This document shows positions 52,266 to 53,875 of a stretch of 64,000 nucleotides of DNA, one piece after another. Position numbers and translations under genes: made by a program. A model generated the notes under the pieces. That model searched no databases. It was not told where the DNA came from and saw only the letters and a list, made by a program, of their open reading frames with translations. Origin of the DNA: Fomes fomentarius (taxonomy: Eukaryota; Basidiomycota; Agaricomycetes; Polyporales; Polyporaceae). Positions within the stretch are counted from its first letter, which is position 1, and each line of letters begins with the position of its first letter. The DNA lies in NCBI GenBank assembly GCA_022606135.1, contig JABYQN010000015.1, forward strand, positions 558,001 to 622,000, written 5' to 3'.

Positions 52266-53875
52266 CTAATTTCCGCCAGCGCGGTATTCTGCGCCACAGT
52301 CACCGATCGTCATGATCATATGTCCGCTGTTCGACTGTGCCAAAACAGCCTCGATGTCGGCCTTGTCCCGCTCTGTCAGCGAGAACGTGAAGACTGTGTT
52401 GTTGTCGTCAGTGTTGTCGCTCAAACCGAGTCGTGCACCTGCGGAGATAGACATCCGCATCAGCTTGGAATCTATAGTTCTCCAAAACAAATGGTGGACC
52501 GCACCTATAATGACAGCGCCAACGAAGGGATGCTCGAGCACCCAGCGCGTGGCGACGTTTGCGATGCTGACTTTGTCGTGGCGGTCAGCGATGTCGCGCA
52601 GGACTCGGAGCAGTTTCTGGAAGAGGTCCCAGGTGCCCCAGGCCTTCAGAATCATATCGAGATACTATCACAATCACACCGTACGCAGTGGCGTGTGAGC
52701 AGGATCCAGGCCAGCTCGATGCAGTCGGAAGGTGCCTTACCTTCCTGAGGGACGGGTTCAATTGAGCCGAGTACAGCTCTGGTTCCGGCTGCCCGAGCCA
52801 CCGATCAGTCAGCAGCCCCCCGCACTGGCCCCGGTGGTGGCGATGTCAACAGACGTGGGAGGACGTGTAAGACGTAAGGATGTGCTCACCAGCGTGCCGT
52901 ATGCGAGCACCTTGAAGCCGTACCGCTCACACAGGTCGTTCATGCCGTGCAAGGGGCGCACGTCGATGAGAGAGAACTGCTGGACGTCAGTACCGCGCTG
53001 CAATTCAATTCAGGGCGCAGGGGCACGCGTGCCCACCTGGACCTGATTAGAGACGATACAGCCGGGGCCAAAAGTGACGCATATCTCCTCCGTCCTCCTC
53101 GTGTCGAAGTTACACAGCCCCAGGTTGCGGAGGCTTCCAGCCGAGCGAAGGTGGAGAAGGTGCTCGATCGCGGTTAGGTAGCTTCTATCCCTGTAGTCCT
53201 GCCAGAAGAACTGTGGGCGTCGTCGGGCGCAAGATATAAGATCAATCATGCACCGCAACGAACTGAGGTGGGTGTGCTTACTTGGAGAAGATCGATACGC
53301 TGGCTCTGCATTCGCGCGAGCCGTTCGTTGACGGCGGCTAGGACGCTTTGGTAGGTTACGACCGTAGGCTCGAAAACACACCACTTGGTGGCGCCGAAGG
53401 GGCGCTGACTATCAGCAGGAAGGCTCCGGAGGAAGTTTCCCTATCACAAGTTGCGAGTATCAGAGTGGAGGTACACGGAGTTGGCACAGATGGGGCTCAC
53501 GAATAGACCCTCAGCAGGGCCATAATGGTCGGCTGTTCATACGACCGTCAGACGCTATTGGCATGATCAGAATGGTGGAATGTACCCTGAGTGTTGGAAC
53601 GACACAGGATTGAGATGTGAGCGCGGAGTGCCATAATCTCGTGCCAGACTTACCATGTCTGTCGGCGGTACGGTCAAAAGTGTCAATAGTTGGAGGAATC
53701 GACCGGACTTACCAAACGCAATGTAACCTTTTCCCAGGTGGGTAGCCATGGCATCACGAACCTTCTGAGCAGGGGCGCTCCCCCAGGCATTGCTGGACAG
53801 CTGCCAAAGACCGATCCAGATCCGGGGAAGCCGGGTGGCTGGGGAGAGTGTGAACTGTTCCAACTGAGTATCCAT
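52266..53875 (-). CDS. Aldo/keto reductase with 5-nt and 1-nt exons
   Basis: NADPH-dependent aldo/keto reductase. Motifs in order: LPRIWIGLWQLSSNAWG, GYIAF-DM-A-DHYGPAEGLFG (Asp and Tyr of the catalytic tetrad), FGATKWCVFEP (Lys), RIDLLQ-FFWQDYRD, RNLGLCNFD, IVSNQVQFSLID, GGLLTDRWLGQPEPE, VATRWVLEHPFVGAVIIGAR and GDCGAEYR. Where the classical family has His (QFHW) this protein has Phe (QFFW). Exons near the start: 53875-53713, 53658-53654 (ACATG), 53586 (G) and 53532-53501. Only with both tiny exons do the phases agree and FDMADHYG appear. The remaining exons join in phase. A TATA box on the minus strand lies at 53944-53950. Family members often act on sugars or aromatic aldehydes; the substrate is unknown. 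Confidence 0.88.
53586..53586 (-). other. Proposed 1-nt exon of the aldo/keto reductase
   Basis: The minus strand reads CACTCAG|G|GTACATTCC. The single G joins ...GAC ATG to CC GAC CAT to make Ala in FDMADHYG. It divides a 121-nt gap into introns of 67 and 53 nt, the usual size here. Confidence 0.6.
53654..53658 (-). other. Proposed 5-nt exon of the aldo/keto reductase
   Basis: The minus strand reads CCGACAG|ACATG|GTAAGT. With the G ending exon 1 it encodes Asp-Met, the Asp being the catalytic-tetrad residue. The upstream intron is 54 nt. Confidence 0.65.

What the first reader, a model, noticed from the sequence alone, without database searches (positions are those of the whole stretch)
53501..53720. 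A single-nucleotide exon next to a 5-nt exon at the catalytic Asp of an aldo/keto reductase
Exon 1 ends GYIAF plus one G. The only way I find to obtain the conserved FDMADHYG in frame is G|ACATG|G|CC: a 5-nt exon (53654-53658) and a 1-nt exon (53586). Both are bounded by AG and GT, and the three introns are then 54, 67 and 53 nt, normal for this genome. Using only the 5-nt exon breaks the frame; skipping both loses the tetrad Asp and leaves an atypical 180-nt intron. One-nucleotide exons are almost unknown in any eukaryote.
Basis: partly seen in the sequence, partly recalled or inferred. Interest (0 to 1): 0.88.

Follow-up and report, generated by a model that had tools for sequence, protein, structure and literature searches.

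The report
One-letter exon in a mushroom gene
A gene of the tinder fungus is cut so finely that one of its coding pieces is a single DNA letter beside a piece of five letters, and a second, distantly related copy of the gene in the same genome is cut at exactly the same places, so the oddity is very probably real although the public annotation of this gene leaves it out.

Summary
Observation confirmed; interpretation supported, not yet proven by RNA. The window is from Fomes fomentarius (Polyporales). The aldo/keto reductase gene on the minus strand reads through ten GT-AG exons, including ACATG (53658-53654) and G (53586), giving 345 aa with FDMADHYG. New evidence: the one other close relative found in this genome (contig C5, 61% identical protein) is split the same way, TTCG|ACATG|G|CCGACC, with nine introns at the same sites and unrelated intron sequence. 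Its deposited protein contains DM and is reproduced by exactly one GT-AG exon chain, which needs the 1-nt exon. A sequencing slip would have to have happened twice. Asp-Met (or Asp-Leu) is present in 32 of 32 transcript-like relatives and 80 of 80 intronless prokaryotic homologues examined. The deposited model of the window gene skips both microexons, as do 85 of 148 deposited models listed. Single-nucleotide exons are known (plant APC11 and VPS55; Fusarium CYP621A, also AG|G|GT), so this is a new member of a known kind; I found no earlier basidiomycete case. No transcript of this gene and no DNA of other mushrooms could be read, so the junction and its age remain to be shown.

The parts
53713..53875 (-). 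Exon 1 (163 nt), ATG to the first base (G) of the Asp codon
   Evidence: matches P0001 and homologues
53659..53712 (-). Intron 1, 54 nt, GTAAGT...CGACAG, phase 1
53654..53658 (-). 5-nt exon ACATG
   Evidence: same exon in the paralogue L016:527-531
53587..53653 (-). Intron 2, 67 nt, GTAAGT...ACTCAG, phase 0
   Evidence: paralogue L016:532-607, 76 nt
53586..53586 (-). Single-nucleotide exon G, first base of the Ala codon GCC
   Evidence: AG|G|GT; same exon in the paralogue L016:608
53533..53585 (-). Intron 3, 53 nt, GTACAT...GAACAG, phase 1, with CTGAC 15 nt before the 3' end
   Evidence: paralogue L016:609-670, 62 nt
53501..53532 (-). Exon 4 (32 nt), CC-GAC-CAT-TAT-GGC..., encodes the rest of ADHYG
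52266..53440 (-). Exons 5-10 (53440-53282, 53210-53037, 52976-52890, 52824-52741, 52664-52505, 52438-52266) with five GT-AG introns between them
   Evidence: skip model with these exons equals P0001 letter for letter

Best explanation
The gene encodes an aldo/keto reductase whose conserved FDMADHYG segment is interrupted by three short spliceosomal introns within eight coding bases, so that Asp-Met-Ala is put together as G | ACATG | G | CC. The G at 53586 is a real single-nucleotide exon, and it is at least as old as the duplication that gave the two Fomes copies. Shown: the sequence, the single GT-AG solution for the motif, the same structure in the paralogue, and the fixed D-x-A-D-H-Y-G spacing in relatives. 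Inferred: that the spliceosome makes this junction in the window gene. Also inferred is the mechanism: an acceptor and a donor one base apart cannot be held at the same time, so the flanking introns must be removed one after the other by intron definition. Intron 2 has the better donor (GTAAGT against GTACAT) and probably goes first, leaving ATGG|GTACAT as the donor of intron 3; the 1-nt exon then works like a recursive-splicing site shifted by one base.
For: Only GT-AG chain giving GYIAFDMADHYG. Paralogue on C5 with the same 5-nt and 1-nt exons and nine introns at the same sites and phases, 205 of 337 residues identical, intron sequence unrelated apart from 13 bp around ACATG and two 7-bp matches. 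Deposited paralogue protein P0109 reproduced by exactly 1 GT-AG chain, the one with the 1-nt exon; with GC donors allowed 9 chains, and the 5 that were printed share the same three introns here. 32 of 32 transcript-like relatives have FDMADHYG; 80 of 80 prokaryotic loci kept have D[LM]ADHYG. Shuffle controls 80 of 5000 and 23 of 5000. Intron lengths of the two genes 49-76 nt, median 60.5, so a merged intron of 121, 139 or 180 nt would stand out.
Against: No transcript of this gene was seen, and none of the 19 rows of its clade is transcript-like. The deposited model skips both microexons, as do 15 of the 19 deposited models of this clade; 1 of 19 (P0012) shows DM. The clade has Phe or Tyr for the catalytic His, and 3 of its rows have Ser for the Tyr, so need for Asp cannot be taken for granted. 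The donor GTACAT is weak. An AG|G|GT arises by chance in 1.6% of shuffles here.
Confidence: 0.92

Rival explanations
1. Both microexons are skipped: one 180-nt intron and a protein with GYIAFADHYG, as in the deposited model P0001.
For: In frame without a stop; equals P0001 letter for letter; 85 of 148 deposited models listed have this form.
Against: 0 of 32 transcript-like relatives have the skip form; 80 of 80 prokaryotic homologues keep the two residues; the intron would be 180 nt against 49-76 nt for the 18 introns of the two genes; the paralogue's deposited protein includes DM.
Confidence: 0.03
2. Another microexon choice is used: a 9-nt exon (FDMVTDHYG), a 6-nt exon with a GC donor (FDYADHYG), or a contiguous ACATGG exon with a non-GT donor.
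For: The first two are open and in frame; ACATGG preceded by AG is contiguous in both genes.
Against: The 9-nt form moves Asp to six before Tyr; the GC form puts Tyr for Met and uses the donor GCACTC; in the paralogue the corresponding GC form gives FDVPDHYG from other bases, so neither recurs, and the paralogue's deposited protein has DMA. ACATGG is followed by TA here and TG in the paralogue, which are not accepted intron starts (general knowledge).
Confidence: 0.03
3. Assembly error: a G was lost next to 53653 and the true exon is a 6-nt ACATGG before GT; the AG|G|GT is chance.
For: Loss of one G from a run is a common long-read error (general knowledge); deposited models of Lyophyllum (P0111) and Phlebia (P0136) read FDMG..., which fits ACATGG|GT as well as 5+1.
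Against: The paralogue lacks the same base at the same place and has its own AG|G|GT. Tricholomella (P0167) reads FDMVRA..., which fits ACATG followed directly by GT.
Confidence: 0.01

Closest known systems
Single-nucleotide exon of CYP621A P450 genes in Fusarium (PMC12940212; abstract, Results and Discussion read)
   Same: Nuclear spliceosomal 1-nt exon, AG|G|GT, in a conserved enzyme motif, found because phases did not fit; short fungal introns; missed by automatic annotation.
   Different: Ascomycete, a P450, and supported there by SRA reads in two species. Here a basidiomycete reductase, with a 5-nt exon directly before it, in two paralogues, without reads.
Single-nucleotide exons of plant APC11 and VPS55 (PMC4674806 abstract and Discussion read; PMC8831610 passages read)
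   Same: Constitutive 1-nt exon flanked by introns, conserved across species, missing from reference annotations.
   Different: Plants; proven by RT-PCR and RNA-seq; larger introns possible; unrelated genes.
Stwintrons, spliceosomal twin introns of fungi (PMC5639578 passages read)
   Same: Two adjacent short introns that must be removed one after the other; the first removal completes the donor context of the second.
   Different: In a stwintron the inner intron lies inside the donor, branch site or acceptor of the outer one and no exon base is left between them; here one exon base stays.
Recursive splicing at ratchet points (named in PMC4674806 Discussion; otherwise recalled)
   Same: Acceptor directly beside a donor, used in sequence.
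   Different: Ratchet points leave no base in the mRNA and divide long introns.

Membership tests
Single-nucleotide exon | one base bounded by AG and GT, with introns of workable size on both sides | tested here: met
   CAG|G|GTACAT, introns 67 and 53 nt; paralogue CAG|G|GTATGC, 76 and 62 nt
Single-nucleotide exon | the base is needed for frame and for the conserved protein | tested here: met
   all 4 stop-free GT-AG chains with Asp at the conserved place use it; only GT-AG chain for P0109 uses it
Single-nucleotide exon | conserved in a second gene or species | tested here: met
   same exon in the C5 paralogue; other species not testable, no DNA held
Single-nucleotide exon | junction seen in RNA | not testable with these tools
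   no transcript of this gene among the rows
Stwintron | inner intron interrupts donor, branch site or acceptor of an outer intron | tested here: not met
   inner intron ends one exon base before the outer donor GTACAT; that donor is whole
Aldo/keto reductase superfamily | PF00248 domain over the curated cut-off | tested here: met
   156.5 bits, cut-off 24, residues 18-320
Aldo/keto reductase superfamily | catalytic tetrad Asp, Tyr, Lys, His (tetrad recalled, not from a call) | tested here: not met
   Asp only with the microexons, Tyr and Lys (GATKW) present, His position is Phe (LLQFFW); the paralogue has LLQFHW

The most novel reading that the evidence does not exclude
The 5-nt plus 1-nt exon pair is an ancient, constitutive feature of this reductase across mushroom-forming fungi, kept since before Agaricales and Polyporales parted, spliced by obligatory one-after-the-other removal of introns around AG|G|GT, and silently missing from most deposited gene models, which therefore lack the catalytic Asp.
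Probability: 0.5. Interest if true: 0.76.

Novelty: new member of a known kind. Interest (0 to 1): 0.64.

Why it matters
It would bring the single-nucleotide exon to a further lineage, with the same AG|G|GT as in Fusarium, and shows one that outlived a gene duplication. Two paralogues with the same exon and unrelated introns are a natural test of how a spliceosome handles an acceptor and a donor one base apart. It also points to a repeated annotation fault: 85 of the 148 deposited models listed lack the Asp-Met pair.

Tried and rejected
Splice-site model trained on the window alone by bridging open frames: first thresholds found 0 groups, the relaxed run gave 38 noisy groups; no site scores are used. 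Viral-contig scan: 58 pattern matches, no relative. Genome-contig scan: prokaryotic, intronless relatives only, used as length markers; one of its two search patterns was ADHYG[SP]AE, so ADHYG in those loci is partly by selection, the two residues before it are not. PDB sequence search: 46 weak matches, all to reductase-like chains as named; FDMADHYG lines up with FDLANNYG in 5t79. Reading the gene structure of other species from their deposited proteins: 4 of 24 garbled models keep DM and then differ (P0103, P0111, P0136, P0167); only P0103 and P0167 tell a 5-nt from a 6-nt exon; kept as a hint only. Tree: 72 of the 156 rows then held, picked by me for species spread, midpoint root; the window clade's place beside Obba and Gelatoporia copies is weak (89/53).

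Literature: searches showed no basidiomycete case in the rows listed; one search listed 15 of 993 papers and 10 of 25, and the library is open-licence PMC only.

Counts that differ between calls: with a looser pattern one search gave 73 skip models of 124, one search gave 71 of 124; with the third search the count is 85 of 148. In one search one of 32 transcript-like rows (P0151) was classed 'other' because its N-terminus is short; it carries FDMADHYG. All protein rows are cluster representatives from lists of the best 120, so these are not counts of all genes.

Full report
WHERE. The window is part of a 40.9-Mb assembly of 24 contigs. The best protein match to the gene is 'Aldo/keto reductase [Fomes fomentarius]', 99% identical (P0001). 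Fomes fomentarius belongs to Polyporaceae, Polyporales.

THE OBSERVATION. The coordinates in the finding are right. The gene runs on the minus strand from 53875 to 52266 in ten exons, all introns GT-AG, 1038 nt with the stop, 345 aa, PF00248 at 156.5 bits. The deposited protein P0001 equals, letter for letter, the model in which 53713 is joined to 53532.

IS THERE ANOTHER WAY. I enumerated GT-AG chains from codon 45 to the DHYG exon: 55 in frame, 24 without a stop, 16 of these keeping GYIAF. Four put Asp at the conserved place, five before Tyr; all four use the 1-nt exon, and one keeps GYIAF without an insertion. Without the 1-nt exon one can get FADHYG by skipping or FDMVTDHYG by a 9-nt exon. 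If GC donors are allowed, 13 of 64 stop-free chains have Asp at that place, among them FDYADHYG by a 6-nt exon.

THE SECOND COPY. A search of the whole genome with the protein scored 8 candidates and found one other close relative, on contig C5; a search with that relative's protein at E up to 10 added only weak matches on C1 and C2. Its DNA (L016) reads GCGTTCG gtgagc ... cccag ACATG gtgaga ... cttacag G gtatgc ... atcacag CCGACCACTATGGG. Its deposited protein P0109 contains FDMADHYG. An exhaustive spliced search (introns 35-250 nt) reproduces P0109 by exactly one GT-AG chain, with exons of 157, 5, 1, 32, 156, 174, 87, 84, 160 and 161 nt. P0109 is recorded on a contig of 3,142,997 bases, the length of C5. 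I did not see the record's exon table, so that its annotators used the 1-nt exon is a deduction. The same enumeration at this gene gave 2 stop-free GT-AG chains that keep GYTAF with Asp in place; both use the 1-nt exon. The two proteins agree at 205 of 337 positions, nine introns sit at the same sites and phases, and the intron stretches share only 13 bp around ACATG and two 7-bp matches. One lost base in an assembly does not explain this.

CHANCE. In dinucleotide shuffles of the stretch between ACATG and CCGACC a usable AG|G|GT arises in 80 of 5000 for the window gene and 23 of 5000 for the paralogue; about 7 in 100,000 for both if independent (inference). The 18 introns of the two genes measure 49-76 nt, median 60.5.

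IS ASP-MET NEEDED. Three protein searches gave 180 rows (the best 120 of each listed, each row a cluster representative). Of 32 rows known only from contigs of 1,152 to 6,652 bases with the frame uninterrupted (source labels jgi or lgn; that these are transcripts is my inference), 32 have FDMADHYG. Of 148 rows with deposited models, 39 have the full motif, 85 the skip form and 24 are garbled at this place. Of the best 80 prokaryotic loci (576 encode a relative), 80 have D[LM]ADHYG, 78 with Leu and 2 with Met; ADHYG was part of one search pattern, the residues before it were not. The skip form in fungi is therefore most likely an annotation fault.

AGE. In a tree of 72 chosen rows the two Fomes genes fall in two separate clades of Polyporaceae-like genera (16 and 15 rows). 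The paralogue's clade is sister to Grifola (97/91), and a split with 99/95 support parts 50 rows, with the paralogue and the rows from other orders (orders recalled from the genus names), from 22 rows with the window gene. The duplication thus looks older than the Polyporaceae (inference; the root is arbitrary). The 1-nt exon is as old, unless it arose twice at one place. Hints from elsewhere: Tricholomella (P0167) reads FDMVRA, which fits ACATG followed by GTAAGA; Mycena citricolor (P0103) reads FDMCFPADHYG, which needs a donor right after ACATG; Lyophyllum (P0111) and Phlebia (P0136) read FDMGT and FDMGK, which fit G followed by GTAC or GTAA with intron 3 kept, but would fit a 6-nt exon too. 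Without the DNA this stays open.

MECHANISM (inference). Acceptor CAG and donor GTACAT (paralogue CAG and GTATGC) are one base apart, so they can hardly be held at the same time; removal must be stepwise. PMC4674806 argues the same for APC11 (Discussion). Intron 2 here has GTAAGT and intron 3 the weaker GTACAT, so I expect intron 2 to go first. A CTNAY branch-like motif is present in introns 2 and 3 of both genes, and in 16 of the 18 introns.

KNOWN CASES. PMC12940212 (abstract, Results, Discussion) reports an AG|G|GT exon in CYP621A of Fusarium, with SRA reads in two species, as the first fungal and second overall. PMC8831610 (passages) had added VPS55 to APC11 in plants. A placozoan mitochondrial 1-bp exon is listed (PMC5436844, search listing), another splicing system. 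PMC12940212 suggests that loss of an exon base at a splice site, rescued by a cryptic AGGGT, could make such an exon; ACATG|G fits that path. The stwintron work (PMC5639578, passages) suggests another: an intron gained beside an existing donor. My searches showed no basidiomycete case.

CAUTION ON FUNCTION. In the window gene's clade the place of the catalytic His is Phe in 18 rows and Tyr in 1; elsewhere 132 rows have His and 5 could not be read (156 rows). Three rows of the clade have Ser for the Tyr. The clade may have changed its chemistry, so the need for Asp should be tested and not assumed. The paralogue keeps FDMADHYG, GATKW and LLQFHW.

Noticed in passing
window 53210-53200 (LLQFFW, about residue 122); rows P0001-P0018 and P0050: The whole clade of the window gene has Phe (18 rows) or Tyr (1 row) where 132 relatives have the catalytic His, and 3 of its rows (P0012, P0015, P0050) also have Ser for the catalytic Tyr: a reductase paralogue that has lost part of its tetrad.
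   Followed up: partly
deposited fungal models in the lists: 85 of 148 deposited models lack Asp-Met at this place and 24 more are garbled there, against 0 of 32 transcript-like rows: a repeated annotation fault.
   Followed up: yes
P0103, P0111, P0136, P0167: Four garbled models seem to carry pieces of introns 2 or 3 after FDM, and hint that the 5-nt exon, perhaps also the 1-nt exon, exists in Agaricales.
   Followed up: partly
L032-L111: Full-length homologues at 45-49% identity are frequent in cyanobacteria such as Nostoc and Anabaena, and scattered in other bacteria; whether genes were transferred was not examined.
   Followed up: no
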